In this document: positions 47,103 to 62,207 of the stretch, piece after piece
How positions within the stretch are numbered: position 1 is the first letter of the stretch
How the letters are laid out: the number at the start of each line of letters is the position of its first letter
Source of the DNA: a bacterium
GTDB taxonomy: Bacteria; Desulfobacterota; Binatia; DP-6
Length of the DNA: 64,000 nucleotides
Assembly (NCBI GenBank): GCA_026129405.1
Contig: JAHCID010000002.1
Location: 248,001-312,000 of the forward strand
Reading direction: 5' to 3'
The notes under the pieces: model-generated
The model's database searches: none
Told to the model about the DNA's origin: nothing
What the model saw: the letters and a program-made list of their open reading frames with translations, nothing else
Made by a program: the position numbers and the translations under genes

Positions 47103-47199
47103 GGCCTCACACTAGAGCAATCGACGTGCCCTTCGAAGACGTCTGCCGCGGGCGCGTTCGACGCCGCAGCGGGGCGAACGGCCACGGGGCACGACGGAG

Positions 47200-47544
47200 T
47201 CATTCGTCGGCGGGGTTGCCGCCGGTCGCCGAGCCGTCGGCACGCATGGCGCCGCGCAGCGCCGCGGAGACGACGTCGGTGACCACGAGCCGGCCTGCGG
47301 TGGCGAAGAGCACGCCCACGAGCCGCGGCGTCAGGCCGCCGCCGAGGAGCCAGCCGGCGGCGCCGACGACCCCGACCGTCTCCCAGGGGTTCGCGCGCAC
47401 CTGGCGTCGCAGCCAGGCGATGCCCTCGGCCGCGGCCGTCTCGATCTCCTCGACGGTGCGATCGCGGTCGACGCGGCCGCGGCGCGGGTGCGTCGCGACG
47501 GATGGGGGATGGCTGCCCGTCCCGGCACGGGACGCCGAGGCCAC
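47200..47544 (-). CDS. DUF883/YqjD-like small membrane protein
   Basis: 114 residues. A basic N-terminal tail, then a helical segment (VEEIETAAAEGIAWLRRQVRANPWETVGVVGAAGWLLGGGL) that resembles the C-terminal membrane anchor of YqjD/ElaB/DUF883 proteins, with RANPW before a single hydrophobic helix, then an additional hydrophobic stretch. Last gene of the small-protein operon; start one base after the preceding stop. YqjD-type proteins tether stationary-phase ribosomes to the inner membrane; that role is not shown here. Confidence 0.6.
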   Translation of the reverse strand: MASASRAGTGSHPPSVATHPRRGRVDRDRTVEEIETAAAEGIAWLRRQVRANPWETVGVVGAAGWLLGGGLTPRLVGVLFATAGRLVVTDVVSAALRGAMRADGSATGGNPADE

Positions 47545-47545
47545 G

Positions 47546-47743
47546 TCAGCGCCGCGGCGCCGCGAGGCGCGCCAGGACGTAGCCGCCGGCGAGCGCGGCG
47601 AGGAGGCAGGTGAGCGGCCGCTCCTGGATCAGCGAGCGCGCGCGGTCCTCGAAGGTCGTGAGCTCGCCGCGCAGGCGCTCGAGCTGCTCGGCCGCCTGGT
47701 CGAGGCCGTTCTGGAGGGTCTCGGTGGTGTCGTCGATGTTCAT
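47546..47743 (-). CDS. DUF883/YqjD-like tail-anchored small protein
   Basis: 65 residues: an amphipathic helix with heptads (TLQNGLDQAAEQLERLRGELTTFEDRARSL) followed by ERPLTCLLAALAGGYVLARL, a single C-terminal membrane helix. This is the layout of DUF883/YqjD proteins. ATG at 47743 with GGAAC upstream; part of the operon running from 48789. Confidence 0.65.
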   Translation of the reverse strand: MNIDDTTETLQNGLDQAAEQLERLRGELTTFEDRARSLIQERPLTCLLAALAGGYVLARLAAPRR

Positions 47744-47777
47744 GGGCGCGTTCCTTCTGGTTGCGAACGGGAAGGGA

Positions 47778-47975
47778 TCAACGGCGCGGGCGGCCGAGCC
47801 AGGCGCCGAGCAGCAGTGCCCCGACCAGCCAGGGCACCGGCCGCTCGCGAACGGCGTCGCGGACGTCGACACGGGCGCGTGCGGCGCGCTCGAGGTCGTG
47901 CAGCGCCGTGCGCAGCTCGTCGCGGTGCTCCGCGACCCGGTGCTCGAGGACGGCGCGTTCCTCCGGCGTGGCCAT
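47778..47975 (-). CDS. Small tail-anchored protein, YqjD/DUF3618-like
   Basis: 65 residues: charged helix (EERAVLEHRVAEHRDELRTALHDLERAARARVDVRDAVRERP) and one C-terminal hydrophobic helix (WLVGALLLGAWLGRPRR). It is a size and layout sibling of the next gene. Starts three bases after the holin-like gene ends, so it is translationally linked. Function unknown. Confidence 0.6.
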   Translation of the reverse strand: MATPEERAVLEHRVAEHRDELRTALHDLERAARARVDVRDAVRERPVPWLVGALLLGAWLGRPRR

Positions 47976-47978
47976 GGC

Positions 47979-48320
47979 TCAGCTTCCGAGCAGCCGGCGA
48001 CTACCGATCCAGGCGACCACGGCGCCGGCGGCGAGAGTGGTCGTCGCCAGCAGCCCCAGACTCGCGGCCGGGTGCATCCACTGGGAGAGGAGGATGTGCA
48101 GGCCGCAGAGCGCCGCCACCCACCCCGAGATCATGACCAGGAGCCCGAGCAGGACGAGGAGCGCGCCGGCGCTCAGCCGCACGAGCGTGGCCTCGATCTC
48201 CAGCCGGATCAGCCCGACCTGATCCGTGGCCAGACCCTGCGCGGCGTCGACGAGGCGGTCGAACGATTCCGCGACGCTCGGCGCCGGCTCCGACGTGCGC
48301 AGGGCCCGGGCGGTGGCCAT
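47979..48320 (-). CDS. Phage-holin-family (YqjE-type) membrane protein
   Basis: 113 residues. A helical N-terminal segment (VAESFDRLVDAAQGLATDQVGLIRLEIEATLVRLSAG) leads into two hydrophobic helices (LLVLLGLLVMISGWVAALCGL, ASLGLLATTTLAAGAVVAWIG). This is the holin 3_6 / YqjE family pattern, commonly encoded next to YqjD-like proteins, as here. The family is named for similarity, not because of lysis. ATG at 48320. Confidence 0.7.
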   Translation of the reverse strand: MATARALRTSEPAPSVAESFDRLVDAAQGLATDQVGLIRLEIEATLVRLSAGALLVLLGLLVMISGWVAALCGLHILLSQWMHPAASLGLLATTTLAAGAVVAWIGSRRLLGS

Positions 48321-48327
48321 CGAAGGA

Positions 48328-48789
48328 TCAGCCGACCGCGACGCGGCGCTCGCCCTCGGCCGCCATCGGCCCACGATCCGCGAAGCCGAATCCCGGGCGC
48401 CGCGACGGCGACGGCGGCAGGTGCACCGGCACCAGCGGCGACGGCATGCCCGTGATCGCCTCGCGGCGACGGCGCAGCCCGCGGCGGATCCAGGCCGGGT
48501 CGAGGTCGAGCATCTCGCAGATGCGCTCGAACGAGAAGACCCAGGTCTTGTCGCGGCTGCGCAGCCAGCGCTCCGTGTCGCGGAACAGACGGCGGCGCTT
48601 GGACGTCGTCGGCTCGCGGTGGCCGAGGTAGACCGCGACCGCGTCCTCGAGGATGGCGATCATCAGCCGCTTCTCACCATGGCGGGCCGCCCGTCGGCGA
48701 AGGGCCGTGAAGTACTGCACGGGCATGATGGTCAGGGGCTCGAAAAGCTGGTTCAGCTGCTCGTCGTGATCGGAATTCGGTCGCGCCAT
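48328..48789 (-). CDS. Conserved hypothetical leader gene of the small-protein operon
   Basis: 153 residues. The middle is distinctive: RRRLFRDTERWLRSRDKTWVFSFERICEMLDLDPAWIRRGLRRRRE, which looks like an N-terminal helix followed by a helix-turn-helix-like segment. I recognise this arrangement as recurrent in deltaproteobacterial proteins but cannot name a function; a DNA- or RNA-binding adaptor is possible. ATG at 48789 has a near-perfect GGAGGTGA ribosome site and a sigma-54 promoter at 48825-48840. First gene of a five-gene operon. Confidence 0.65.
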   Translation of the reverse strand: MARPNSDHDEQLNQLFEPLTIMPVQYFTALRRRAARHGEKRLMIAILEDAVAVYLGHREPTTSKRRRLFRDTERWLRSRDKTWVFSFERICEMLDLDPAWIRRGLRRRREAITGMPSPLVPVHLPPSPSRRPGFGFADRGPMAAEGERRVAVG

Positions 48790-48824
48790 GGTGTGGTCAC
48801 CTCCGTGCGGTTGCGAAGTGCTTG

Positions 48825-48840
48825 TGCAGACGGCGTGCCA
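48825..48840 (-). promoter_or_regulatory. Sigma-54 (-24/-12) promoter of the small-protein operon
   Basis: On the minus strand the sequence is TGGCACGCCGTCTGCA: consensus TGGCACG, four bases, then CTGCA, with GG and GC exactly 10 bases apart. Predicted start is near 48814, leaving about 25 bases with GGAGGTGA before the ATG at 48789. A dyad lies about 70 bases upstream (48906-48920). Confidence 0.75.
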
Positions 48841-48905
48841 GCTCGGGTGACGGCGTTTCCACGCGCAACCAGGTGAAATCCCGAAGGCATTGGCGGCGTG
48901 CCGAA

Positions 48906-48920
48906 TTGTCTTTTCTACAA
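48906..48920. promoter_or_regulatory. Candidate activator site (dyad TTGTCTTTTCTACAA)
   Basis: Imperfect palindrome in an AT island between divergent genes. Its core TGTCTTTTCTACA matches the dyad at 52452-52464 at 11 of 13 positions. Placed about 70 bases upstream of the sigma-54 -24 element at 48838, the usual distance for an enhancer-binding activator. It also lies upstream of the activator's own operon (48998), so it could serve autoregulation. Confidence 0.55.
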
Positions 48921-48997
48921 CTCGCCCCCCGCCACGGCCTTGCAGGATGTACAAGCGGTCTTCCGCCCGATGCCGGCTCGGCTATGCTCCGGGCGCC

Positions 48998-50431
48998 GTG
49001 ACGCGAACCTGCGACGTCGCCGTGATCGGTGCGGGCTCCGCCGGGATCGCGGCGCACCGCGCCGCCCGCCTGGCCGGAGCGCGGGCCGTGCTCATCGACG
49101 GAGGCCCGTCGGGCACGACCTGCGCCCGTGTCGGCTGCATGCCGTCGAAGCTGCTCGTGGCGGCGGGCGAGGCGGCGCATGCCGTGGCGCGTGCCGGGGA
49201 GTTCGGCATCCGCGTGCCGGACGGCGTACGGGTCGACGCGGCGGCCGTGCTCGGACGCGTGCGGCGCGAGCGCGACCGCTTCGTGGCCGGCGTCCTCGAG
49301 GCCCTCGGCGCCCTGGCGGCGGGCGAACGGGTGTGCGGCCGGGCGCGCTTCGTCGGCCCGACGGCGCTCGCGCTCGAGGACGGCACCCACCTCGACGCCC
49401 GCGCGGTCGTGATCGCCACCGGCTCGCGCTCGCAGGTCCCGGCCCTGCTCGAGCCCGTCCGTGAGCGCGTGCTGACGAGCGACGACGTGTTCGAGCTGAC
49501 CGCCCTGCCGTCGTCGGTGGCGGTGCTGGGCGCCGGTCCGATCGGCCTCGAGCTCGGCCAGGCGTTGGCGCGCCTCGGCGTCCGCGTGACGATCTGTGAT
49601 CGGCTGCGCGAGGTCGGCGGCCTCCGCGACCCCGCGGTGGCGGCCGCGGCGCGCGACGCCCTCGGGGCCGAGCTCGCGTTCGCGCTCGGCGTCACGGTCA
49701 CGGCGGAGCCCCGCGGCGACGGCGTCCGGCTCTGGCTCGACGGAGAGGGGGGACGCCGGCCGCTCGACGTCGAGCGCGTGCTGGCGGCGACGGGACGCGG
49801 GCCAAACGTCGATGCGCTCGGGCTCGCCGCGACCGGGCTCGCCTGCGACGACCGCGGCGTGCCGCTGCACGACGCGGGCACCGGCCAGTGCGGCACCAGC
49901 CCGGTGTTCGTCGCCGGTGACGCCGGCGGCGGGCGCGCCATCCTGCACGAAGCGGTCGACGACGGTCGCATCGCCGGCCGCAACGCGGCCCGCTTCCCCG
50001 ACCTCGAGCGCCCGCGCCGCCGCACGCCGCTCGCCATCGTCTTCACCGAGCCGCAGCTGGCGATGGTGGGCGAGCGCTTCGACGCCCTCGACCGCGACGC
50101 CGTCGCCTTCGGGGCCGCCGACTTCGCGACCCAGGGCCGGGCGCGGGTGATGGCGCGCAACCGCGGCCTCGTGCGCGTGTGGGCCCGCCGCGACGACACG
50201 CGCCTGGTCGGCGGCGAGCTCGCGGTGCCCGACGCCGAGCACCTGGCACATCTCCTCGCCTGGGCGATCCAGGCGGAGTGCACCGTCGAGGAGGCCCTCG
50301 CCATGCCCTGGTATCACCCGGTCGTCGAAGAGGGACTGCGCAGCGCGATCCGCGAGCTCGCCGCCGCGACCCACTCGCGCCCGCCGGAGCGGCCGCAGGA
50401 CCTCGAGTGCGGTCCGGGGGTGTGCGCGTGA
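48998..50431 (+). CDS. Dihydrolipoamide-dehydrogenase-like flavoprotein disulfide reductase
   Basis: 477 residues from the GTG at 48998. FAD motif VAVIGAGSAGIAAHRAARLAG, redox-active disulfide GTTCARVGCMPSK (C-x4-C), NAD(P) motif VAVLGAGPIGLELGQALARLG, second FAD motif PVFVAGDAGG, and a dimerisation domain (LAIVFTEPQLAMVG). The His-Glu pair is in WYHPVVEE. No 2-oxo-acid dehydrogenase genes are near, so it is unlikely to be a housekeeping lipoamide dehydrogenase. The C-terminus adds CGPGVC, a possible extra redox pair. Its stop overlaps the next gene (GTGA), in an operon with a sigma-54 activator. Confidence 0.85.
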   Translation: MTRTCDVAVIGAGSAGIAAHRAARLAGARAVLIDGGPSGTTCARVGCMPSKLLVAAGEAAHAVARAGEFGIRVPDGVRVDAAAVLGRVRRERDRFVAGVLEALGALAAGERVCGRARFVGPTALALEDGTHLDARAVVIATGSRSQVPALLEPVRERVLTSDDVFELTALPSSVAVLGAGPIGLELGQALARLGVRVTICDRLREVGGLRDPAVAAAARDALGAELAFALGVTVTAEPRGDGVRLWLDGEGGRRPLDVERVLAATGRGPNVDALGLAATGLACDDRGVPLHDAGTGQCGTSPVFVAGDAGGGRAILHEAVDDGRIAGRNAARFPDLERPRRRTPLAIVFTEPQLAMVGERFDALDRDAVAFGAADFATQGRARVMARNRGLVRVWARRDDTRLVGGELAVPDAEHLAHLLAWAIQAECTVEEALAMPWYHPVVEEGLRSAIRELAAATHSRPPERPQDLECGPGVCA

Positions 50432-51086
50432 GCGGCACGCCGTGGGACGAGGACGCGCTGGCGGCGGCGCGTCTGCGCAGTCTGGCGCGGATCGTACGCG
50501 CCGTCGGGCACGACGCGCGCGGCGCGCTCGGCACCGTCACGCTGCACGGAACGCTCCTCGTGAAGGCGCTCGAGGCGGACGCGGCGCCCCCCGGCGAGCG
50601 CACGCGGCGCTGGGCGTCGGGGATGCACGAGGGATGCGTGCGCCTCGAGCGCCTGCTCGACGCCGTGCTCGGCTTCCTCGCCGTTCCGCGCGGCGGCGAC
50701 GCGGTGCTGGCGCCGGTGACGGCGTCGCTCGTCACCCTCGTGCGGCCCTACGCGCTCGCGCAGCGCGTGGGGCTCATCGTGCACGACGGCGTCGCCCAGG
50801 GCCCGGCGGTGCCCGAGGTGGTGCGGCAGGTGCTCCTCGACGTTGTGCTCGCCGCCATCGAAGCGGCCGGCGAGGGCGGCGAGGTGACGGTCGCCACCGC
50901 GACCGCGGGCGGCAGGGGTAGCGTGACCGTCACCGGGCCGAGCCCGCCGGGCGACCTCGCGTCGCAGCTGCGGCCGTGGCGCGCGGCCCTCGCCGAGGCC
51001 GGTACGATGGTCGAGGTCGCCGCCGGCGGCGGGTTCGCGGTCACCGTTGACATTTCGCCTCGCGACACCCAGGAGACGCGCTGCTG

Positions 51087-51087
<1 letters not shown>
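50428..51087 (+). CDS. Degenerate histidine-kinase-like protein (ChpT-like or pseudokinase)
   Basis: 219 residues, no sensor domain. The DHp-like part has LARIVRAVGHDARGALGTVTLHGTLL, with a plausible phospho-His (GHDARG). The ATPase-like part keeps the fold outline (VVLAAIEAAGEGGEVTVATA) but the N-box Asn is Ala, and no DxGxG or GxGLG motif follows (VTVTGPSPPGD instead). It should not bind ATP normally. This resembles the ChpT class of phosphotransfer proteins or an allosteric pseudokinase. GTG overlaps the flavoprotein stop; the activator ATG overlaps its own stop by one base, so all three are co-expressed. Confidence 0.7.
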
Positions 51088-52442
<1,355 letters not shown>

Positions 52443-52451
52443 CCGCGGCCA

Positions 52452-52464
52452 TGTAGTTTCTACA
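52452..52464. promoter_or_regulatory. Candidate activator site (perfect dyad TGTAGTTTCTACA)
   Basis: Perfect 5-bp arms around TTT, ten bases after the activator stop and about 53 bases upstream of the -24 element at 52517. Matches the dyad at 48906-48920 at 11 of 13 core positions. Likely enhancer site for the PLD gene. Confidence 0.55.
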
Positions 52465-52515
52465 CGCCGCCCCGGCCGCGCAGCGCGGCGCCCTTCGGAA
52501 ACGCGGAGTTGCCGA

Positions 52516-52531
52516 TGGCATGCGACCTGCT
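52516..52531 (+). promoter_or_regulatory. Sigma-54 (-24/-12) promoter of the PLD-VTT gene
   Basis: TGGCATGCGACCTGCT: GG and GC 10 bases apart, TGGCATG and CTGCT blocks. Predicted start near 52542, right at the ATG at 52541, so translation may begin at a downstream GTG (52601 or 52628) or from a near-leaderless message. Confidence 0.6.
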
Positions 52532-52540
52532 GACCGGCGC

Positions 52541-54585
52541 ATGGCCGTGCAACCGCTCGCGCAGTCCCGCCACGCGACGCGCGCCGCAGACGACGCCATC
52601 GTGGCTGCCGGACGCAACGCCTGGTGCGTGGAGCGAGCCGACCGGGTCGCCTTCCTGGTCGACGCCGCCGACTACTTCGCCGCCTTCGCCGCCGCCGCGC
52701 GGCGGGCGCGCGAGAGCATCCTCGTCGTCGGCTGGGACGTGCAGGAGGGCACGCCGCTCTTCCCCGCCGCCGCCGAGCCCGAGCGCCGCAGCCTCGGGCA
52801 GTTCCTCGACGAGCTCTGCCGGGCGCGGCGCGACCTGCGCGTCCACGTCCTCGACTGGAACTTCTCGCTGGTGTTCGCGCTGGAGCGCGAGCTGCTCCCG
52901 ACCTGGCGCTCGGGCTGGCGCCGCCATCGCCGCGTGCGCTTCCGGCTCGACGCCGAGCATCCGCTCGGCGGCTGCCATCACCAGAAGATCGTCGTGATCG
53001 ACGACACCATGGCCTTCGTCGGCGGGCTCGATCTCACCACCTCGCGCTGGGACACCTCGGAGCATGCCGCCGCGGACCCGCGGCGCCGTGGGCCCGACGG
53101 GACGCCGTACGCTCCGTTCCACGACGTGCAGATCGCCGTCGGCGGCCCCCTGTGCAGCTGGAGCGCCTTCACACGCGGCGCTGCAGCGGGCGACCGGGCG
53201 GGAAGCGCCTGCGGGCGCCGCGTCGGCCCTCGGAGGCCTGGCCGCCGGCGCTGCGCGCCGATCTCACCGACGTCGACGTCGCGCTCGCGCGCACCGAGCC
53301 GGCCTACGCCGGCCGCCGCGAGGTGCGCGAGGTCGAGGCGCTGTTCGCCGATACGATCGCGGCCGCGCGCGAGGTGCTCTACGTGGAGAACCAGTACCTC
53401 ACGGCGATCGGTCTCGGCGAGGCGCTCGCGGCGGCGCTCGCGAAGCCGCACGGGCCCGAGGTGATCCTCGTCGTGCCGCAGACCTGCTCGGGATGGCTCG
53501 AGGAGGGCACGATGGGCGTGCTGCGGGCGCGTCTCGTGCGCCGCCTGCGGGCCGCCGATCGCTTCGGACGCCTCTACGCCTATGCCCCCTGCGTGCCGGG
53601 CTCCGACGGACCCGTCTTCGTCAACGTCCACGCGAAGGTGATGATGGCGGACGACGCGCTCCTGCGCATCGGCTCGGCGAACCTCAGCAACCGCTCGATG
53701 GGGATGGACACCGAGTGCGACCTCGCGCTCGAGTCGCACGGCGACCACCGGATCGGTGCGACGATCGTCGGCCTCCGCGACCGGCTCCTCGGCGAGCATC
53801 TCGGCGTGGCGCCGGCGGCGTTCGCCGACGCCGTGCGCGCCGCGGGCTCGGTCGGCCAGGCGATCGAGCGCCTGCGCGGCGGCCCGCGCACACTGGTGCC
53901 GCTCGCCGACGTCGATCCCGGCTGGCTCGACGAGACCCTGCCTCCCACCGTGTTCCCCGACCTCGAGCGCCCCGTCGCCGACGTCGCGCCCCTCGCCGAG
54001 ACGCTGCCGCCGGGCCTGCGCGAGCCGGTGCTGCGCACGGCGCTCCGCGGCCTCGGCGTGCTCGCCGTGCTGCTCGGTCTCGCGGCGCTGTGGAACGCCA
54101 CCGGCCTGCACGACGCGATCGTGCCGTCGACGCTGGCGGCGTCGCTGGCGCCGCTGCGCGAGAGCGCCGCCGGGCCGCTGGTCGCACTGGCCGGCTTCGT
54201 CGTCGCGGCGACGTTCCTCGTGCCCGTGACCGCGCTCATCGCCGCCACCGTGCTGCTCTTCGGGCCGGCGCTCGGCGCACCCCTGGCCCTGGTCGGGAGC
54301 CTGCTCGCCGCCGGGGCGGCGTATGCGATCGGCCGGCTCTTGTGGCGCGATACCGTGCGGCGGCTCACCGGCCCGGCGCTCGGGCGCGTCGCACGGCAGC
54401 TCGCGCGTGCCGGGACGACGGGGGTGGCCGCCGTGCGCCTCGTCCCCGTGGCGCCGTACACCGTCGTCGGCGTGGTCGCGGGGGCGCTCCAGGTGCGCTT
54501 CCTGCCGTATCTCGCCGGCACCGCGCTCGGCCTCCTGCCGGGGATCCTCGGGCTCTCGCTCTTCGCCGACCTGCTGATCGGCTGA
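52541..54585 (+). pseudogene. PLD-family phospholipase/cardiolipin-synthase-like with VTT domain, frame-disrupted
   Basis: Two HKD motifs are visible: HHQKIVVIDDTMAFVGGLDL in one frame and NVHAKVMMADDALLRIGSANL in another. After them come about 200 residues with VTT/DedA-like membrane helices (FVVAATFLVPVTALIAATVLLFGP, AVRLVPVAPYTVVGVVAGAL). The protein leaves the first frame near GGCCCCCTG (53150), is best read as HAALQRATGREAP in a second frame, and resumes in a third by WPPALRADL (53245). Two one-base changes within about 100 bases explain this. Either an assembly error or a real lesion is possible; both catalytic halves look intact. Likely role: phosphatidyl transfer or hydrolysis at the membrane. 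Confidence 0.75.
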
Positions 54586-54589
54586 CGGC

Positions 54590-55261
54590 ATGGTCGTGGC
54601 GACGTGGAACGTCCACGGCTGCCGCGGCGGTGACGGCCGCTGCGATCCGGAGCGCGTGGCCCGGGTGGTCGCGGAGCTCGACGCCGACGTCGTCGGCCTC
54701 CAGGAGATCGAGCCCGCGGTGGTCGACGTCATCGCCGCGCACACCGGACACACGGCCATCGCGGCTCCGACCCGCACGCATCATCCCGGCACGGGCGGCA
54801 ACGCGCTCCTCACGCGCCATCGCGTGGCCGCCGTGCGCCGTCACGATCTGTCGCGCGCCGGGCGCGAGCCGCGCGGCGCGCTCGACGTCGACCTGTCGCT
54901 CGTCGGGCGCCGCTGCCGCGCGCTCGTGACCCACCTCGGGCTCCAGGGCGCCGAGCGGCGCGCCCAGGTCCGCCAGCTCCTCGCGCTGCTGGGGGCCGAC
55001 CCCGCGCCGGGCGGGCTCACGGTGCTGCTCGGCGACCTCAACGAGTGGCTCGGCCCGGGCCGCGCGCTGCGTGCGCTGCGCCGCGGCTTCGCCTGCGGCG
55101 GAGCGCGCTCCTTTCCGGCCCGGCTGCCGCTCTTCGCGCTCGACCGCGTCGTCGTGCGGCCGGCCGTGGCGCTGCAATCCGTGCGCGCGCACGGCTCGCG
55201 TCTCGCGCGCATCGCGTCCGATCACCTGCCCGTGGTCGGCGTCATCCGGGGGTGGACATGA
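54590..55261 (+). CDS. Endonuclease/exonuclease/phosphatase family protein
   Basis: 223 residues, only 4 bases after the PLD gene. Catalytic motifs of the DNase I-like fold: ATWNVHG (Asn), VGLQEIE (Glu), HPGTGGNALLT, VTHLGLQG, LLGDLNEW (Asp/Asn) and SDHLPVVG (Asp-His). No signal peptide, so cytosolic. PLD-VTT genes are often paired with such hydrolases, which suggests a phospholipid or phosphodiester role; DNA repair is the other family option. Confidence 0.87.
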   Translation: MVVATWNVHGCRGGDGRCDPERVARVVAELDADVVGLQEIEPAVVDVIAAHTGHTAIAAPTRTHHPGTGGNALLTRHRVAAVRRHDLSRAGREPRGALDVDLSLVGRRCRALVTHLGLQGAERRAQVRQLLALLGADPAPGGLTVLLGDLNEWLGPGRALRALRRGFACGGARSFPARLPLFALDRVVVRPAVALQSVRAHGSRLARIASDHLPVVGVIRGWT

Positions 55262-55386
55262 ACGGGTGGACACGAACGCGGCGGTCGTGAGCGGCCTCGT
55301 CGATTCCGATCCGCAGCCGCCGCGGCTGCTGGCACACCTCGCCTGGCTCGAGTCGGACGCCGGGCCGGGGCCGCGATGGCGCGCGC

Positions 55387-56217: not shown

Positions 56218-56229
56218 GGGCAGCGGGCG

Positions 56230-56409
56230 CTACGGGAGTGGTGTCGATCGGCCGCCGATCGCACGCCCGAAGATACCGATGGCGAGGACGACGATCCCGA
56301 GCACCGCCAGGAGCCAGCCGATGTCGGCCGACATGCCGGCGACGCCGCCGAAGCCCAGCGCGGCGGCGACGAGCGCGATGATGAAGAACGTGATCGCCCA
56401 GCTCAGCAT
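56230..56409 (-). CDS. DUF1328 (YtjA-type) small membrane protein
   Basis: 59 residues: MLSWAITFFIIALVAAALGFGG then a second helix (IGWLLAVLGIVVLAIGIFG). This closely matches the DUF1328/YtjA family of tiny two-helix inner-membrane proteins induced by envelope or osmotic stress. AAAGGAG precedes the ATG at 56409. Served by the minus-strand sigma-54 promoter at 56449-56464. Confidence 0.88.
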   Translation of the reverse strand: MLSWAITFFIIALVAAALGFGGVAGMSADIGWLLAVLGIVVLAIGIFGRAIGGRSTPLP

Positions 56410-56448
56410 GGTGGGTTCTCCTTTCGCAGACGTCTCGTCGTGAGCAGG

Positions 56449-56464
56449 AGCAACGGCCATGCCA
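56449..56464 (-). promoter_or_regulatory. Sigma-54 promoter of the DUF1328 operon
   Basis: Minus-strand TGGCATGGCCGTTGCT: near-consensus TGGCATG, four bases, TTGCT, correct 10-base GG-GC spacing. Predicted start near 56438, giving a leader of about 29 bases that includes AAAGGAG. Confidence 0.75.
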
Positions 56465-56504
56465 CCATGGCCGCCACGCGCGTGCGGCGCGCGCCGCCCG
56501 CGGC

Positions 56505-56530
56505 GTTGTAACTCCTGGAAAGGTTGTAAG
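56505..56530. promoter_or_regulatory. Shared upstream element with two GTTGTAA repeats
   Basis: GTTGTAA occurs at 56505-56511 and again at 56523-56529, 18 bases apart, in an AT-rich patch between divergent sigma-54 promoters. The first copy followed by CTCCTGGA resembles the TGTAN..CT..A dyads elsewhere, but more weakly. Likely enhancer region for both directions. Confidence 0.45.
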
Positions 56531-56619
56531 GCGCTCGTCCCGCGGCCGGTGTCCCGCGGGCTCGGCCCAGCGCCGGGGATCCTTTGGAGACGCGGGCGTT
56601 GCGGCGGCGGCGCCGCGGT

Positions 56620-56635
56620 TGGCGCGGAACCTGCT
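56620..56635 (+). promoter_or_regulatory. Sigma-54 promoter of the BON/SGNH operon
   Basis: TGGCGCGGAACCTGCT: TGGC block, CTGCT block, GG-GC spacing 10. One position (G for A) departs from TGGCA. Predicted start near 56646, 48 bases before the ATG at 56694. Confidence 0.65.
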
Positions 56636-56693
56636 GAACCTTCGCAGACCCGCGGTAGGCCTGCGGGATCCCATCGGAGTGGAGGAGACTCGC

Positions 56694-57728
56694 ATGCACA
56701 AGTCGATCGCTCTCACGCTCGCGGCGTTCGCCGCGGGCGCGTGGTTCGTCATCACCCCCGACGTTCGCGCCGCGGCGCCGGCGGATGCGTGGATCACGAC
56801 GAAGGCGAAGATCGCCCTCGTCACCGCCGACGACGTCTCGGCGATGGCCGTGAACGTCGACACCATCGACGGCCGGGTCACGCTGCACGGAACCGTCGAC
56901 TCGGAGGCCGAGAAGGCGAAGGCCGAGGACGCCGTCGCGCAGATCGCCGGCGTGCGCGAAGTGCGCAACATGCTCCAGGTCGTCGCGCCGTCGCGCCAGG
57001 AGTCGATGCAGGTGCTCGACGAGAAGCTGCGCGAGAGCGTCGTCGAGACGCTGAAGCGCGACCGACAGCTCGCCGACGTCTCGGTCCAGTCGGTGAACGC
57101 CGGCGTGGTGCTGCTCGCCGGCACGGTGCCGACGCTGACGGCGCATCTCGACGCCCTCGAGACGGTGTCGGCGGTGCCGGGCGTCCGCCGCGTCGAGACC
57201 GAGATCAAGAGCCCCGACCGACTCGGGGACGCCGAGATCCAGAAGGAGCGCGGCGTCGCCGGCGCGACGACGGGCGGCGTCGGCGACATGTGGCTCACCT
57301 CGGCGGTGAAGCTGCGGCTGCTGGCCGACGAGCGCGTGCCGGGCATGGACATCAACGTCGACACCACGCGCGGCACGGTCACGCTCTTCGGCATCGTGGC
57401 GACGAACGAGGCCAAGGCGGCGGCCGAGCAGGACGCGAAGAAGGTCGAGGGCGTCCGCACGGTGAAGAACGCGCTCCAGGTGGTGCCCGAGGAGCGGCAG
57501 GAGCAGGTCGCCGCGAAGGACGAGGAGCTCCAGGAGCGCGTGGAGCAGAAGCTCGCGCAGAGCGAGGCGCTCGGCAAGGCGGGCGTCGACGTCGACGTGA
57601 AGAACGGCGTCGCGCGCCTCACCGGCACCGTGCCGTCGTCGGAGGACCGGCTGCGCGCGGCCGTCCTGGCGCGCACCACCCCGGGTGTCCGTGCCGTCAC
57701 CGAAGAGCTGCGCGTCGAGACCAATTGA
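56694..57728 (+). CDS. Exported protein with four BON domains
   Basis: 344 residues; ATG with GGAGGAG upstream; signal peptide (SIALTLAAFAAGAWFVITPDVRA). Four BON repeats follow: residues about 25-90 (VNVDTIDGRVTLHGTVDSEAE), 95-165 (VNAGVVLLAGTVPT), 195-260 (VDTTRGTVTLFGIVATN) and 265-340 (VDVKNGVARLTGTVPSSED). BON domains occur in OsmY-type periplasmic proteins and bind phospholipid or protein surfaces under osmotic stress. Followed 22 bases on by the SGNH gene. Confidence 0.85.
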   Translation: MHKSIALTLAAFAAGAWFVITPDVRAAAPADAWITTKAKIALVTADDVSAMAVNVDTIDGRVTLHGTVDSEAEKAKAEDAVAQIAGVREVRNMLQVVAPSRQESMQVLDEKLRESVVETLKRDRQLADVSVQSVNAGVVLLAGTVPTLTAHLDALETVSAVPGVRRVETEIKSPDRLGDAEIQKERGVAGATTGGVGDMWLTSAVKLRLLADERVPGMDINVDTTRGTVTLFGIVATNEAKAAAEQDAKKVEGVRTVKNALQVVPEERQEQVAAKDEELQERVEQKLAQSEALGKAGVDVDVKNGVARLTGTVPSSEDRLRAAVLARTTPGVRAVTEELRVETN

Positions 57729-57750
57729 GGGACGGGAAGGACGTCTCACC

Positions 57751-59145
57751 ATGAACGCACGACGTGTCTGCACCATCGCCCTGGCCGGCCTCGTGGCCGG
57801 CCCGGGCGTCGGCCTCGGCCTGCCGGACGCGGCGACCGCCGGCTCGGCGCTGCTGCGCCGGACCGTGGTGATCGGCGACAGCATCCTCGCCGGCTTCGGC
57901 GACGGCGGGCTGCGGCGCAACGGTCCGATGGGACAGCGCAACGCCGCACCGCGCCTGATCGCGCGGCGGGCGGGGGTGAAGCTGCAGCAGCCGGCCATGA
58001 CGGCGCCGGGCTTCCCGCCGCCGTTCCGCATCGTCGATCGCAATCGCAACGGCCGGCTCGACCCCGGCGAGATCGAGCGCCGGTCGAGCGGCATCGGCTT
58101 CCGCGCCAACGCCGGCGTCGCGGCGCGCAACCTCGCCGTACCCGGCGAGAGCGTCGCCACGGTGTTCGAGCAGGTCGACGCGGGGGACGTGGCCGGCCAG
58201 CTCTTCGGCGGCGACGCCGACGGCCGCGACCTCATGAAGTTCGCCATCCTCGGCCTGCCGCTGCGCGACGAAGGCGTGTCGCAGGTGCGCCGCGCCCGCG
58301 ACATCGGGCCGACCTTCCTGCTCGTGTGGCTCGGCAACAACGACGTCCTCGACATGGCGACGGCCACCAACCCGAACGCCGTCGACGAGACGCCGGAGGC
58401 GTTCGGCGTCATGTATCGCCGCCTGCTGAACGCGCTCGCCGACACGGGCGCGCCCATGGCGGTGGCGAACCTGCCCGACGTGACCCAGATCGCGGCGCTG
58501 CGCCCCGCCGCCGGCGAGGTGACGCAGTGCCGCCGCGGCGACGGCACGATCCTGCCCGTCGCCGCCGACGACCTCCTGCCGCTCGATCTCGACACCGCCA
58601 CCCTGCCGACGCCGTCGTGCGGCGACGTGCTCGACGCCGACGAGCGGGCGCGCATCCGCGCCACGATCCAGGCCTTCAACGCGGAGATCGCCGCCGCCCT
58701 CGACGAGATCGAGACGACGCGCGGCGTTCCCGTCGCCCGCGTCGACGTGTTCGCGCTCTTCGACGGGATCGCGACCACGGGCTACGACGTCCGCGGCGAC
58801 GGGACGCTCGTCCTCACCACGAAGTACCTGGGCGGCGTCTTCGGGCTCGACGGCGTCCATCCGACGCGCACGGCCCACGCCCTCATCGCCAATGCATTTC
58901 TCGACGCGATCGAAGCGCGCTTCGGCGAGGCCATCCCGCGCGTCAACGTGGCGGCGATCGCCAACGGCGATCCGCGCGTGCGCAACCGCTTCGCGCCCGC
59001 CGGCGAGGCGCCGTTCGGCCTCTTCGCGCCGGACGAGATCCAGAACCTGATGCCGTCGGTCTTCCAGGACATCGCCGACGACGGCGGCGACTTCCTCGAC
59101 GACCTCGAGAAGAAGGTCGGCGATTTCTTCGACGACCTGTTCTGA
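57751..59145 (+). CDS. Exported SGNH/GDSL hydrolase
   Basis: 464 residues; signal peptide (TIALAGLVAGPGVGLGLPDAATA). Catalytic blocks: VVIGDSILAGFGD (Ser), the Gly/Asn oxyanion block is represented by LVWLGNNDVLD, and DGVHPTRTAHALIANAF supplies the Asp-His. It is an ester hydrolase of lipids, acetyl groups or glycans in the periplasm or outside. An EF-hand-like DRNRNGRLDPGEIE loop lies near residue 100 and may bind calcium. The last 40 residues are acidic (FDDLF end). Second gene of the sigma-54 operon. Confidence 0.83.
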   Translation: MNARRVCTIALAGLVAGPGVGLGLPDAATAGSALLRRTVVIGDSILAGFGDGGLRRNGPMGQRNAAPRLIARRAGVKLQQPAMTAPGFPPPFRIVDRNRNGRLDPGEIERRSSGIGFRANAGVAARNLAVPGESVATVFEQVDAGDVAGQLFGGDADGRDLMKFAILGLPLRDEGVSQVRRARDIGPTFLLVWLGNNDVLDMATATNPNAVDETPEAFGVMYRRLLNALADTGAPMAVANLPDVTQIAALRPAAGEVTQCRRGDGTILPVAADDLLPLDLDTATLPTPSCGDVLDADERARIRATIQAFNAEIAAALDEIETTRGVPVARVDVFALFDGIATTGYDVRGDGTLVLTTKYLGGVFGLDGVHPTRTAHALIANAFLDAIEARFGEAIPRVNVAAIANGDPRVRNRFAPAGEAPFGLFAPDEIQNLMPSVFQDIADDGGDFLDDLEKKVGDFFDDLF

Positions 59146-59147
59146 CC

Positions 59148-60590
59148 TCAGGCCGTCGATGCGCCGTCGTCGAGCCGCCGCAGGACCGCCGCGGCGTGCT
59201 CGACGGCGGCGTGCACGCGCTCGGCGTGCCGTGGCGACGGCTCGGTGGCGGCGTCGAGCGGCGCCGTCGCCAGCTCGATCTCCCGCACCGCGGCGTCGAG
59301 CTCGTGGAGGATGCGCGCCGCCTCCGCCGACGGGGCGGCGCGCAGCGTCGCCTGGGCGGCGCCCAGACGACGCACGATGCGCTCGACGGCGGTCTCGAGG
59401 CGCTGATCCAGCTCGTCGCCGCGGTGGTCGGGCGAGGCCGGATCGATCCCCATGCGCGTCTCGCGCTGCCGCAACCGCTCGCGCAGCCGCGTCCGCAGGC
59501 TGCGCGCGCGGGCCCACAGGCCGCGCAGCGTCGCCGGCTCGCTCGCGGGCACGTCGAGCCCGTCGCCGAGGACCGAGCGCTCGACGAGCACCTGGAGCGC
59601 GACGGCGGCGGGGATGGCGGCGATCACGCCGAGGGGCCCGACCAGCGAGCCCAGGACGAGCAGGGCGAGCAGCGAAGCGAGAGCGCTGAGGCCGACGGCG
59701 TGGGCCATCACGCGCGGCATCAGCACGTGGCTTTCGACGAGCTGCACGAGCGACGCCCAGGCGGTCACCGCGAGCACCGTGCCGCTGCCGAGCGGCAGCG
59801 CGAGGAGGATCGCCGGCACCGCGGCGACCAGCGGGCCGACGACGGGAATGGCCTCGCAGACGCCGGCGATCAGGCCGAGCACGATGGCGTCCGGCAGACC
59901 GATCGCCGCGTAGCCGGCGGCAGCGGCGACGCCGACGGCGATCATCACCAGCACCTGGCCGCGGACGAAGGCGCCGAGACGCGCCTCCAGCTCGTGCCAT
60001 GCCGAGAGCGCCTCGGCGCGCCGCTCGACCGGGACCAGCGACAGCACGAGGCGCTCGACCCGCGGCACGTCGAGCGCCCAGTAGAGCGAGAGCGCGAAGG
60101 TCGCGACCGCCAGCGACACGGCGGCCAGGACGCCGGTCGTCAGACCGAAGACGCCGCGCAACGAGTCCATCGACAGCGCGCCGGTGATCGTCGCGGGGAC
60201 GGCGTCGAGCGCGGGGAGCCGCGACCCGAGCAACCGCAGCAGGCGCAACCGGCTCTCATGGAGCGCCGCAAGGACGGCGTCGTAGTGGCGCGGCAGCTCC
60301 ATGAGGAAGGCGACGACGCGGTCGACGACGATCGGGACGACGGCGACGGCGGCCACCAGCACGAGGAGCAGCACGGCGACGTAGACCGCGACGATCGCCG
60401 GCCCGCGCGGAACGCCGTGACGCGTCAGCAGGCCGTGCACCGGCTGGAGCGCACAGGCCAGCACGATGGCGAGGAAGGTGAGGAGGACGATGTCCGACAG
60501 CCACCACGTGAGCACCAGGCCGGCCAGGCCGAGCATCACGGGAACGGGACGCATCGGGCTCGTGCGGACGGCGCCGTCGGGAGCTGTCAT
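59148..60590 (-). CDS. AI-2E family transporter-like permease
   Basis: 480 residues. Typical AI-2E helices: VMLGLAGLVLTWWLSDIVLLTFLAIVLACALQP, GPAIVAVYVAVLLLVLVAAVAVVP, FALSLYWALDVPRVERLV, GLIAGVCEAIPVVGPLVAAVPAI, and the closing GVIAAIPAAVALQVLVER. A cytosolic C-terminal helical extension of about 120 residues is unusual for the family. Substrates vary (AI-2, Na+/H+ exchange, small solutes). It starts 227 bases from the YflT-like gene and runs in the same direction. Confidence 0.85.
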   Translation of the reverse strand: MTAPDGAVRTSPMRPVPVMLGLAGLVLTWWLSDIVLLTFLAIVLACALQPVHGLLTRHGVPRGPAIVAVYVAVLLLVLVAAVAVVPIVVDRVVAFLMELPRHYDAVLAALHESRLRLLRLLGSRLPALDAVPATITGALSMDSLRGVFGLTTGVLAAVSLAVATFALSLYWALDVPRVERLVLSLVPVERRAEALSAWHELEARLGAFVRGQVLVMIAVGVAAAAGYAAIGLPDAIVLGLIAGVCEAIPVVGPLVAAVPAILLALPLGSGTVLAVTAWASLVQLVESHVLMPRVMAHAVGLSALASLLALLVLGSLVGPLGVIAAIPAAVALQVLVERSVLGDGLDVPASEPATLRGLWARARSLRTRLRERLRQRETRMGIDPASPDHRGDELDQRLETAVERIVRRLGAAQATLRAAPSAEAARILHELDAAVREIELATAPLDAATEPSPRHAERVHAAVEHAAAVLRRLDDGASTA

Positions 60591-60816
60591 GTGCCGTCGC
60601 GCACTGTAGCGCGTGCGCGGCGGCGGGGAAGACGGGTCGTACGGTGTGCGGCTGCGCCCGCGCGGGGCGATGGCCGGTGCGGGCGTTTTCGTGATCGACG
60701 TCGTCGATCCCTTCGAGGTCGCCGGGGTGGAGGCGCCGTTCGCGCAGGCGCGGGCGGCGCGATCGGCCCCGCCGCGCTGCCGGGCGGCAGCGTCGGCGGG
60801 GCGACGACGAGGGACG

Positions 60817-61332
60817 TCAGACGCGGGCTTCGCTCGCCGACGCGACGTCCTCGGCGCCGGCGCGGTCGAAGATCTCCTTCGCGCGCGCCTTCTGCTTGCC
60901 GTCCTCGGTATGGACGGCGATCAGGATGTTGCCGTCCTGGATCTTACCCTCGTAGCGCTTCGCCTCGAACTCGGGGACGCCGAGCCCGACGAGCGCGCCC
61001 GTGAGCCCACCGACGGTGGCCCCGACGGCCGCACCGCTCAGCGCGGCCATGATCGGCCCGGCCGCGATGAACGGACCGAGGCCGGGGATGGAGAGCGCCC
61101 CGATCCCTGCGAGCCAGCCGAGGGCGCCGCCGAGGACGCCGCCGGTGCCGGCACCGGCCGCCGCTCCCTCGGGGGCCTTGGTGTTCTGCTCGTGCGCGAA
61201 GTCGCGCGTGGTGCTGGTGTCGGGGAAGAGGACGGAGATGTCGTTGCCCGAGAAGCCCGCGGCCTTGAGGTCCATCACGACGGCCTCGGCCTGGAGCTCG
61301 GTGCGGGCGATGCAGACGACGGAGCTTGCCAT
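60817..61332 (-). CDS. Stress protein of the YflT/GsiB-like glycine-rich family
   Basis: 171 residues. The N-terminus SVVCIARTELQAEAVVMDLKAAGFSGNDISVLFPD is a small ferredoxin-like domain, then a long Gly/Ala hydrophobic hairpin (AGTGGVLGGALGWLAGIGALSIPGLGPFIAAGP) likely to insert in the membrane, and the domain completes with KRYEGKIQDGNILIAVHTED. This is a widespread bacterial family often labelled general stress protein. Third gene of the CsbD-BON operon. Confidence 0.75.
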   Translation of the reverse strand: MASSVVCIARTELQAEAVVMDLKAAGFSGNDISVLFPDTSTTRDFAHEQNTKAPEGAAAGAGTGGVLGGALGWLAGIGALSIPGLGPFIAAGPIMAALSGAAVGATVGGLTGALVGLGVPEFEAKRYEGKIQDGNILIAVHTEDGKQKARAKEIFDRAGAEDVASASEARV

Positions 61333-61359
61333 GGATCTACCTCCTGGGCGGCGTGCGCC

Positions 61360-61746
61360 TCACGGCGCCGCCACCTCGAGCTGATCGACGACCTTGGCGG
61401 GACCCGCGACCTTCTGCGCGAGCGCGACCACGGTCGCCTTCTCCGCAGGGCTGTTCACGGGACCGCGCACGGTGACGGCACCTTCGACGGTGACGACCTT
61501 CACGTTCTTCGCGTTGGTCGACAGGGCGTCGTTCTCGACCAGCGCCTCGCGAATGCGGCGCGTCGTCTCGCGATCGGCGGCCGATTCGGATTGGTCGAGT
61601 GGGGTGACGGTGCCGCCGCCGGCGTCACGGGTGTTCCGGGCGGTGTCGGTGGCGGCGGTGGTGGTGGGCTCGCGGTCGCCGCAGCCGATCGCGACGAGCG
61701 CCACGATGCCGGCGACGGCGAGACGCGACAGCGATGACGAGCGCAT
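61360..61746 (-). CDS. BON-domain lipoprotein
   Basis: 128 residues. Lipobox in VALVAIGCGD (Cys22). A low-complexity linker precedes a BON domain: RETTRRIREALVENDALSTNAKNVKVVTVEGAVTVRGPVNSPAEKATVVALAQKVAG. It would sit in the periplasm tethered by lipid, similar to OsmY-like or DolP-like envelope stress proteins. Located between CsbD and the YflT-like gene in one operon. Confidence 0.82.
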   Translation of the reverse strand: MRSSSLSRLAVAGIVALVAIGCGDREPTTTAATDTARNTRDAGGGTVTPLDQSESAADRETTRRIREALVENDALSTNAKNVKVVTVEGAVTVRGPVNSPAEKATVVALAQKVAGPAKVVDQLEVAAP

Positions 61747-61760
61747 GCACGCCTCCTTTC

Positions 61761-61958
61761 TCACTGCGACTGGAGCCAGGAGTCGATCTCCTTGCGGGCC
61801 TCTTCCTTCGTCCGCCCGTAGCGCTCCTGGATCTTGCCGGCGAGGATGTCGGCCTCGCCCTCGGCCTGATCGAGGTCGTCGTTGGTGAGCTTGCCCCACT
61901 GCTTCTGGACGTGGCCGCGGAGCTGCTTCCACTGGCCCTTCAGGGTATCAGCGTTCAT
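61761..61958 (-). CDS. CsbD-family stress protein
   Basis: 65 residues: MNADTLKGQWKQLRGHVQKQWG, LTNDDLDQAEGEADILAGKIQERYGRTKEEARKEID. This is a full match to the CsbD/YjbJ family of small helical stress proteins controlled by general stress sigma factors elsewhere. GGGAGGA lies upstream of the ATG at 61958. First gene of an operon under the sigma-54 promoter at 62016-62031. Confidence 0.93.
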   Translation of the reverse strand: MNADTLKGQWKQLRGHVQKQWGKLTNDDLDQAEGEADILAGKIQERYGRTKEEARKEIDSWLQSQ

Positions 61959-62015
61959 TCGTGTGTCCTCCCTGGAGCCGGCCGCGTTGCGCGGCGGCGT
62001 TCCACGGGCGCTCCT

Positions 62016-62031
62016 TGCACGAGCGGTGCCG
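62016..62031 (-). promoter_or_regulatory. Sigma-54 promoter of the CsbD operon
   Basis: Minus-strand CGGCACCGCTCGTGCA: GGCAC block, TGCA block, 10-base spacing. Weaker in its first base (C for T) and at the G of ACG. Predicted start near 62005, 47 bases before the ATG. Confidence 0.6.
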
Positions 62032-62075
62032 GCCCGATTCTCCGCGCCGATTCGGACGGCCGGGCGGCGGAGCCC

Positions 62076-62090
62076 TTGTAAAGTGTAGAC
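62076..62090. promoter_or_regulatory. Shared candidate activator site between divergent promoters
   Basis: TTGTAAAGTGTAGAC combines TTGTAA and TGTAG half-sites. It lies 45-55 bases from the -24 elements of both the CsbD promoter and the oxidoreductase promoter. Agreement with the dyad at 52452 is 8 of 13. Confidence 0.45.
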
Positions 62091-62140
62091 GCGGCGCGAG
62101 TCCGCGTACGCGCACGCCGCAAGCGGCGCGGACGCCGGCT

Positions 62141-62156
62141 CGGCACGGATGCTGCT
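62141..62156 (+). promoter_or_regulatory. Sigma-54 promoter of the FAD/Rieske oxidoreductase
   Basis: CGGCACGGATGCTGCT: GGCACG, four bases, CTGCT, spacing correct. Predicted start near 62167, about 40 bases before the ATG at 62208, with GGGAGGAGGG as ribosome site. Confidence 0.65.
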
Positions 62157-62207
62157 CTGCGGGTGTGGCCATGCGCGCTGGTGCGGCGGGCCGGGAGGAG
62201 GGACCGC

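What the first reader, a model, noticed from the sequence alone, without database searches (positions are those of the whole stretch)
47103..62207. A sigma-54 regulon of small stress and envelope genes around one activator
Six -24/-12 matches of the form GGCRYN-N4-NTGCW stand at sensible positions before stress-type operons: 48825-48840, 52516-52531, 56449-56464, 56620-56635, 62016-62031 and 62141-62156. The genes are YqjD/YqjE-like, PLD-VTT, DUF1328, BON/SGNH, CsbD/BON/YflT-like and FAD-Rieske. AT-rich TTGTA-type dyads lie about 50-105 bp upstream of each. In well-studied bacteria such genes depend on RpoS or sigma-B; here sigma-54 with a dedicated activator (51087-52442) appears to replace them. 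I know of no description of such a stress regulon.
Basis: partly seen in the sequence, partly recalled or inferred. Interest (0 to 1): 0.86.

Follow-up and report, generated by a model that had tools for sequence, protein, structure and literature searches.

The report
A sigma-54-run envelope stress gene set

Summary
All six -24/-12 sites are present; five score well on a sigma-54 matrix and one (62016-62031) is weak on its own. rpoN is in the genome. Sigma-54-matrix hits of 16 bits or more are about 70 times denser between genes than inside them (43.9 vs 0.6 per Mb). The dyads refine to TGTAR-N3-YTACA. In the whole 5.6-Mb genome only two sites come within one mismatch of TTGTA-N5-TACAA, both before the 48825 promoter. 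Orthologous activators (55-71% identity, near-invariant recognition helix) in class relatives sit among the same genes, and 18 of 58 sigma-54 sites there carry an upstream dyad (1 downstream; permuted motifs mean 0.5). Dyad plus -24/-12 pairs also occur elsewhere in the own genome, before BON, SRPBCC and small secreted proteins and a DUF1328 operon. Best reading: an NtrC-type response regulator drives an envelope/general stress regulon. 'Replaces RpoS' is only partly supported: no RpoS or SigB equivalog passes its cut-off, but sigma-70 paralogues exist. No description was found in the held library, though sigma-54 stress regulons exist as a kind. Expression evidence is lacking.

The parts
51087..52442 (+). 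sigma-54 activator, NtrC-type response regulator (REC - AAA+ with GSFTGA loop - Fis-type HTH)
   Evidence: Pfam PF00158, PF00072, PF25601, PF02954; not an equivalog of any NCBIfam model; catalytic motifs and helix GISLKTLYNRL conserved in orthologs
50428..51087 (+). truncated histidine-kinase-like protein (H-box GHDARGAL, degenerate ATPase part), overlaps the activator start
   Evidence: no Pfam hit; weak match to ZraS profile E 6e-6; 34% homolog next to the G003 activator
48998..50431 (+). dihydrolipoyl-dehydrogenase-type flavoprotein, first gene of the activator operon
   Evidence: Pfam; NCBIfam NF004939 above cut-off
48825..48840 (-). -24/-12 promoter TGGCACGCCGTCTGCA of the 48789-47200 operon
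   Evidence: matrix 17.8 bits, rank 5
48906..48920 (.). dyad TTGTCTTTTCTACAA, 65 bp from the -24 box
   Evidence: one of only two sites with 1 mismatch or fewer in the genome
48940..48954 (.). dyad TTGCAGGATGTACAA, 99 bp from the -24 box; also about 44 bp before the divergent 48998 operon
48328..48789 (-). unnamed protein family (all-helical core), first gene of the operon
   Evidence: no Pfam or NCBIfam hit; homologs next to sigma-54 sites in own genome and relatives; AF2 core confident, no PDB match
47979..48320 (-). YqjE/holin-X-type membrane protein
   Evidence: PF07332
47778..47975 (-). small membrane protein, operon member
   Evidence: gene call; homolog in L070
47546..47743 (-). YqjD/ElaB-like small protein
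   Evidence: gene call; homolog in L070
47200..47544 (-). DUF883-type glycine-zipper protein
   Evidence: PF19029 just below cut-off
52451..52465 (.). dyad ATGTAGTTTCTACAC
   Evidence: 50 bp before the -24 box
52516..52531 (+). -24/-12 promoter TGGCATGCGACCTGCT
   Evidence: 16.9 bits, rank 16
52541..54585 (+). PLD-VTT phospholipase-like gene, frameshifted near 53150
   Evidence: PF00614, PF13091, PF09335 in two frames
54590..55261 (+). endonuclease/exonuclease/phosphatase family protein, operon with PLD
   Evidence: PF03372; PLD+EEP pair also at Cupriavidus and G025 activator loci
56449..56464 (-). -24/-12 promoter TGGCATGGCCGTTGCT of DUF1328
   Evidence: 19.2 bits, rank 1
56230..56412 (-). 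DUF1328 small membrane protein
   Evidence: PF07043
56506..56520 (.). shared dyad TTGTAACTCCTGGAA (further half-site TTGTAAGG at 56524-56531) between two divergent promoters
   Evidence: TGTAAGGC half-site conserved before G003 BON4
56620..56635 (+). -24/-12 promoter TGGCGCGGAACCTGCT of the BON4-GDSL operon
   Evidence: 12.3 bits
56694..57728 (+). four-BON-domain exported protein
   Evidence: PF04972 x4
57751..59145 (+). GDSL/SGNH hydrolase
   Evidence: PF00657
62016..62031 (-). -24/-12 promoter CGGCACCGCTCGTGCA of CsbD-BON-YflT (weak)
   Evidence: 8.5 bits, rank 677; strong orthologous site in G003
61761..61958 (-). CsbD-like protein
   Evidence: PF05532
61360..61746 (-). BON-domain lipoprotein-like
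   Evidence: PF04972
60817..61332 (-). YflT-domain glycine-zipper protein
   Evidence: PF11181
62076..62090 (.). shared dyad TTGTAAAGTGTAGAC between divergent promoters
   Evidence: near-identical GTCTACATTTTACAC before G003 csbD
62141..62156 (+). -24/-12 promoter CGGCACGGATGCTGCT of the FAD-Rieske gene
   Evidence: 12.3 bits
62208..63758 (+). FAD-dependent oxidoreductase with C-terminal Rieske domain
   Evidence: PF01266, PF00355
47116..47131 (-). additional sigma-54 site GGGCACGTCGATTGCT before SOD, 13 nt from ATG, no dyad (may belong to another sigma-54 group)
   Evidence: 14.7 bits

Best explanation
The region is the core of a sigma-54-dependent envelope/general stress regulon run by the response regulator at 51087-52442. 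Proposed steps: a stress signal alters phosphorylation of the receiver domain, perhaps through the adjacent truncated kinase and/or an unlinked kinase (inferred). The activator binds TGTAR-N3-YTACA dyads 40-100 bp upstream of each promoter (inferred from motif co-occurrence and the near-invariant recognition helix). Its AAA+ domain remodels sigma-54 RNA polymerase at the -24/-12 sites (established mechanism of the family). This co-induces small membrane, BON, CsbD, DUF1328, YqjD/E-like, PLD-VTT and FAD-Rieske proteins. Two of the divergent gene pairs share one dyad. The dyads at 48906-48954 also face the activator's own operon, so autoregulation is possible.
For: rpoN present. Sigma-54 matrix hits are 40-70 times enriched between genes. 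In the window 5 sites have an upstream dyad vs 0 downstream. Class relatives: 18 of 58 sigma-54 sites near the activator have an upstream dyad, 1 downstream, permuted motifs mean 0.46 and max 5. Word enumeration on activator loci excluding the window gives GTAA-N3-TTAC (p 3e-9) and TGTA-N5-TACA (p 2.5e-7) as the two top words in the genome contigs set. Orthologous DUF1328, CsbD, BON4, GDSL, PLD-VTT and 48331-family genes carry the same promoter plus dyad layout. Cluster gene families occur at 1.70 per 20 kb around class activators and 0.45 around more distant ones vs 0.09 elsewhere in the own genome. Exact composite pattern in 148 class genomes: 6 of 19 genomes with the activator vs 8 of 129 without, Fisher p 0.003. 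Dyad plus promoter pairs outside the cluster precede BON, SRPBCC, small secreted proteins and a DUF1328 operon. In Achromobacter, a genus carrying the activator, a CsbD/DUF1328/BON cluster is reported as up-regulated in the Sb(III)-resistant strain (PMC11719878).
Against: No expression or binding data for this organism. In 32 activator-bearing genomes reached through the distant loci (mostly Burkholderiales) the strict composite is not above control (2 vs 2), and dyad pairing in those loci is only moderate (10 vs 4 downstream). Outside the window the own-genome enrichment is modest (5 of 65 vs 6 of 501, p 0.005; 14 of 100 permuted motifs reach the observed count), and part of that sample was chosen because it held dyads. 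The 62016 site is weak. 'Stress' is inferred from gene families. Eight class genomes have a composite without the activator at the cut-off used.
Confidence: 0.82

Rival explanations
1. The -24/-12 sites are real sigma-54 promoters, but the activator for some or all is another of the genome's many enhancer-binding proteins; the dyads are sites of a different regulator and the linked activator is a neighbour only.
For: The own-genome first look gave 111-115 candidate loci for this activator family, and most sigma-54 promoters in the genome have no dyad. Some class genomes have composites without the activator.
Against: Dyads cluster with this activator across genomes and next to the same gene families; composite presence associates with the activator (p 0.003); the recognition helix is near-invariant as expected for one conserved operator.
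Confidence: 0.12
2. The regulon belongs to a known envelope regulator type under another name (ZraR, PrsR or AtoC/NtrC equivalog), so it is an ordinary member.
For: The activator scores on all these profiles, the truncated partner resembles ZraS, and small exported proteins also follow composites in relatives.
Against: All scores are far below the equivalog cut-offs: NtrC 406/559, AtoC 388/714, PrsR 359/503, ZraR 323/760, GlrR 291/763. The gene content fits none of these regulons as generally known.
Confidence: 0.08
3. The matches are chance in a GC-rich genome and the genes use ordinary promoters.
Against: Strong intergenic enrichment, dyad pairing and conservation at orthologous genes.
Confidence: 0.03

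Closest known systems
ZraSR (E. coli envelope stress, sigma-54)
   Same: Two-component response regulator of NtrC type activating sigma-54 promoters of envelope-stress genes; divergent promoters near the regulator (general knowledge).
   Different: ZraR profile score 323 vs cut-off 760; no zraP-like target seen; gene content is CsbD/BON/DUF1328/YqjD-E.
D. vulgaris sigma-54 stress regulators DVU3305, DVU1419 and DVU3381 (PMC3333781, PMC4641369)
   Same: Sigma-54 response regulators assigned to general or envelope stress, with mapped or predicted binding sites.
   Different: DVU3305 targets are UspA-type and hypothetical genes with a Lon-type partner; no BON or CsbD mention in PMC4641369; orthology not tested.
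PspF/Psp and GlrR-rpoE
   Same: Sigma-54 control of membrane or envelope stress (general knowledge; PspF membrane stress in PMC3162934).
   Different: PspF has no receiver domain (general knowledge); different targets; profile scores far below cut-offs.
PrsR and sigma-54 PEP-CTERM gene control (PMC1569441, PMC9850573)
   Same: Response-regulator activator plus sigma-54 promoters before exported proteins.
   Different: PrsR equivalog cut-off not met (359 vs 503); no PEP-CTERM gene noted in the cluster.
Sigma-54 as controller of the bacterial exterior (Francke et al. 2011, PMC3162934)
   Same: Envelope theme of sigma-54 regulons.
   Different: The passages read do not name this activator group or this gene set.
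RpoS / sigma-B general stress regulons
   Same: Overlapping target families (CsbD, YflT, YqjD, BON/OsmY; general knowledge).
   Different: Different sigma factor and activation mechanism.

Membership tests
sigma-54 (RpoN) regulon | rpoN gene in the genome | tested here: met
   PF04552 E 6e-63
sigma-54 (RpoN) regulon | -24/-12 promoters enriched upstream of genes | tested here: met
   43.9 vs 0.6 per Mb at 16 bits or more
sigma-54 (RpoN) regulon | expression depends on rpoN | not testable with these tools
   needs a mutant
NtrC-type bacterial enhancer-binding protein | REC, AAA+ sigma-54 interaction domain with GAFTGA-type loop, Fis-type HTH | tested here: met
   Pfam; GSFTGA conserved
NtrC-type bacterial enhancer-binding protein | upstream activator sites paired with -24/-12 | tested here: met
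   (sequence level only)
ZraR / NtrC / AtoC / PrsR / GlrR equivalogs | NCBIfam equivalog cut-off | tested here: not met
RpoS- or SigB-dependent general stress response | RpoS or SigB equivalog in the genome | tested here: not met
   best 297 vs 379 bits for RpoS, 139 vs 234 for SigBFG
envelope/general stress regulon | targets belong to stress or envelope families | tested here: met
   CsbD, YflT, BON, DUF1328, holin-X/YqjE, PLD-VTT
envelope/general stress regulon | induced by stress | not testable with these tools
   only indirect: Achromobacter CsbD/DUF1328/BON cluster up in the Sb(III)-resistant strain (PMC11719878)

The most novel reading that the evidence does not exclude
A so far undescribed orthologous group of sigma-54 activators, found in several phyla, controls a general/envelope stress regulon through TGTAR-N3-YTACA operators, and in lineages without an RpoS or sigma-B equivalog it serves as the main general stress response.
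Probability: 0.45. Interest if true: 0.78.

Novelty: new variant of a known kind. Interest (0 to 1): 0.64.

Why it matters
Small stress proteins such as CsbD, DUF1328, BON/OsmY and YqjD are abundant and poorly understood. Tying them to one sigma-54 activator with a defined operator would give a concrete handle on what induces them, and would show that a general-stress-like programme can be built on ATP-driven sigma-54 control instead of a competing sigma-70-type factor. The activator and several of the gene families also occur in culturable Burkholderiales, so the idea is testable at the bench.

Tried and rejected
First dyad pattern with the wrong spacer (TTGTAG-N5-TACAA) gave only noise and was dropped. 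A strict composite search of 32 activator-bearing genomes reached through distant loci was not above control, so the operator claim is limited to the class and to moderate evidence elsewhere. Structure of the 48328-48789 protein: confident helical core but no PDB match, so no function is assigned. The RpoN-dependence papers of P. phymatum showed none of these families in the passages read. PrsR, ZraR and NtrC identity rejected on cut-offs.
Full report
What was checked. The window lies at C2:248001-312000 of a 5.63-Mb, 100% complete genome with one rpoN gene.

Are they sigma-54 promoters? A sigma-54 matrix (weights written from general knowledge of the consensus) was run over 2.03 Mb of the genome with genes called by codon use. 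Hits of 16 bits or more: 43.9 per Mb between genes and 0.6 per Mb inside genes; 14-16 bits: 72.5 vs 1.9. In the cluster, 56449 is the best hit of the sample, 48825 is fifth, 52516 is sixteenth, 62141 and 56620 are good, and 62016 is weak. Of the genome's 22 exact matches to TGGCAYG-N4-YTGCW, three are in this 15 kb, and nearly all 22 lie shortly before a start codon. Sigma-54 is therefore widely used in this genome, and what sets the cluster apart is the dyads.

The dyads. They refine to TTGTA-N5-TACAA. In the whole genome only two sites have one mismatch or fewer, at 48906-48920 and 48940-48954, both before promoter 48825; 48 sites have two or fewer, five of them in the cluster. That pattern was derived from these sites, so independent tests were made. 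Enumerating all 4-mer dyads upstream of sigma-54 sites near activator genes of other organisms gave GTAA-N3-TTAC (p 3e-9) and TGTA-N5-TACA (p 2.5e-7) as the two best words in the genome contigs set; they describe one operator, TGTAR-N3-YTACA. In the smaller class set TGTA-N5-TACA tied with three other words for first place. Around class activators, 18 of 58 sigma-54 sites have an upstream dyad against 1 downstream; 100 permuted motifs averaged 0.46 with a maximum of 5. For the more distant loci (mostly Burkholderiales) the figures are 10 against 4, permuted mean 2.2. In the window they are 5 against 0.

Conservation. Activator orthologs with 55-71% identity occur in 19 of 148 class genomes, and similar ones in Burkholderiales, Acidobacteriota and other groups. 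The GSFTGA loop and the helix GISLKTLYNRL are near-invariant. Homologs of cluster proteins occur at 1.70 families per 20 kb around class activators, 0.45 around the more distant ones, and 0.09 elsewhere in the own genome. Orthologous genes keep the promoter layout. G003 DUF1328 has TGGCACGCACGTTGCT with a dyad 42 bp upstream. G003 csbD has TGGCATGTGTCCTGCA with GTCTACATTTTACAC 41 bp upstream, against GTCTACACTTTACAA 44 bp upstream here. G003 BON4 and GDSL, and the 48331-family genes of G002, G003 and G012, have it too. At the Cupriavidus respiraculi locus the same pair precedes PLD-VTT. An exact composite pattern in 148 class genomes was found in 6 of 19 genomes with the activator and 8 of 129 without (p 0.003; reversed-pattern control 4 sites against 19). 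In 32 genomes reached through distant loci the strict composite was not above control (2 vs 2), so the operator is well supported only within the class.

Beyond the cluster. Dyad plus -24/-12 pairs elsewhere in the genome precede a two-BON-domain gene and another BON gene (C2:472-474 kb), an SRPBCC protein (C4:217 kb), small secreted or membrane proteins (L175, L212, L218), a secreted TPR protein (C1:498 kb) and a small gene followed by DUF1328 (L019). The enrichment there is modest: 5 of 65 sigma-54 promoters vs 6 of 501 control intergenic windows, p 0.005, and the permuted-motif test outside the window is not significant (14 of 100 permutations reach the observed count). Part of the sample was chosen because it contains dyads, which weakens the figure.

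The activator and its operon. The protein is a response regulator with AAA+ and Fis-type domains. It falls well below every NCBIfam equivalog cut-off. It is preceded by a flavoprotein of dihydrolipoyl-dehydrogenase type and a short histidine-kinase-like protein with an H-box but no recognisable ATPase domain. The two best dyads lie between this operon and the divergent 48331 operon, so autoregulation is possible (inference).

RpoS and sigma-B. The best matches to the RpoS and SigBFG models are below cut-off (297 vs 379 and 139 vs 234 bits), so neither equivalog is present. Sigma-70 paralogues exist and could still have a stress role, so 'replaces' remains unproven.

Literature. Eight searches of the held open-access library found no account of a sigma-54 regulon of CsbD, BON and DUF1328 genes. 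Known sigma-54 stress or envelope systems show the kind is not new: DVU3305, DVU1419 and DVU3381 in D. vulgaris (PMC3333781, PMC4641369), and the general link to the bacterial exterior (PMC3162934). In Achromobacter a CsbD/DUF1328/BON cluster is reported as up-regulated in an antimonite-resistant strain (PMC11719878), which fits co-regulation but does not show sigma-54 control.

Verdict. A real, conserved sigma-54 regulon of envelope and stress-type genes with a dedicated activator and a definable operator. The mechanism is inferred from sequence. The arrangement is a new variant of a known kind.

Noticed in passing
own genome sample, e.g. L238:12398, L236:17907, L214:4414, window 47116-47131: A second class of strong sigma-54 sites lies 12-14 nt before the start codon (15 of 62 scored sites), so their transcripts would be leaderless or nearly so; mostly without the dyad.
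   Followed up: partly
window 48328-48789 and L164, L169, L172, L191, L194, L235, L017: The unnamed 48331 protein family has about seven homologous loci in 36% of the genome; several are preceded by strong sigma-54 sites. All-helical core with possible HTH, no Pfam or PDB match.
   Followed up: partly
window near 53150: The PLD-VTT gene is split over two frames; either an assembly error or a broken gene.
   Followed up: no
L209:8000-10600 (C2:472-474.6 kb): Neighbouring sigma-54 sites before a DksA/TraR-type protein, a two-BON protein and a BON protein, and a divergent small gene.
   Followed up: partly
L093:3825 (-): In a Burkholderiales MAG a composite promoter near the activator precedes a protein that looks like a second RpoN (judged by eye from its N-terminus).
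   Followed up: no
L305, L073:8369: In Caballeronia and Cupriavidus, composite sites precede genes that look like glycogen/trehalose enzymes, hinting that compatible-solute genes belong to the regulon there.
   Followed up: no
L258:14341 (-), L263:9924 (+): Composite promoters before small exported proteins of one shared family in G003 and G002, possibly exosortase-associated (from memory, not tested).
   Followed up: no
class genomes G050, G052, G054, G067, G068, G071, G093, G138: Composite sites in genomes without the activator at the cut-off; one (G093) precedes a 48331-family-like gene, so a divergent activator may exist there.
   Followed up: partly
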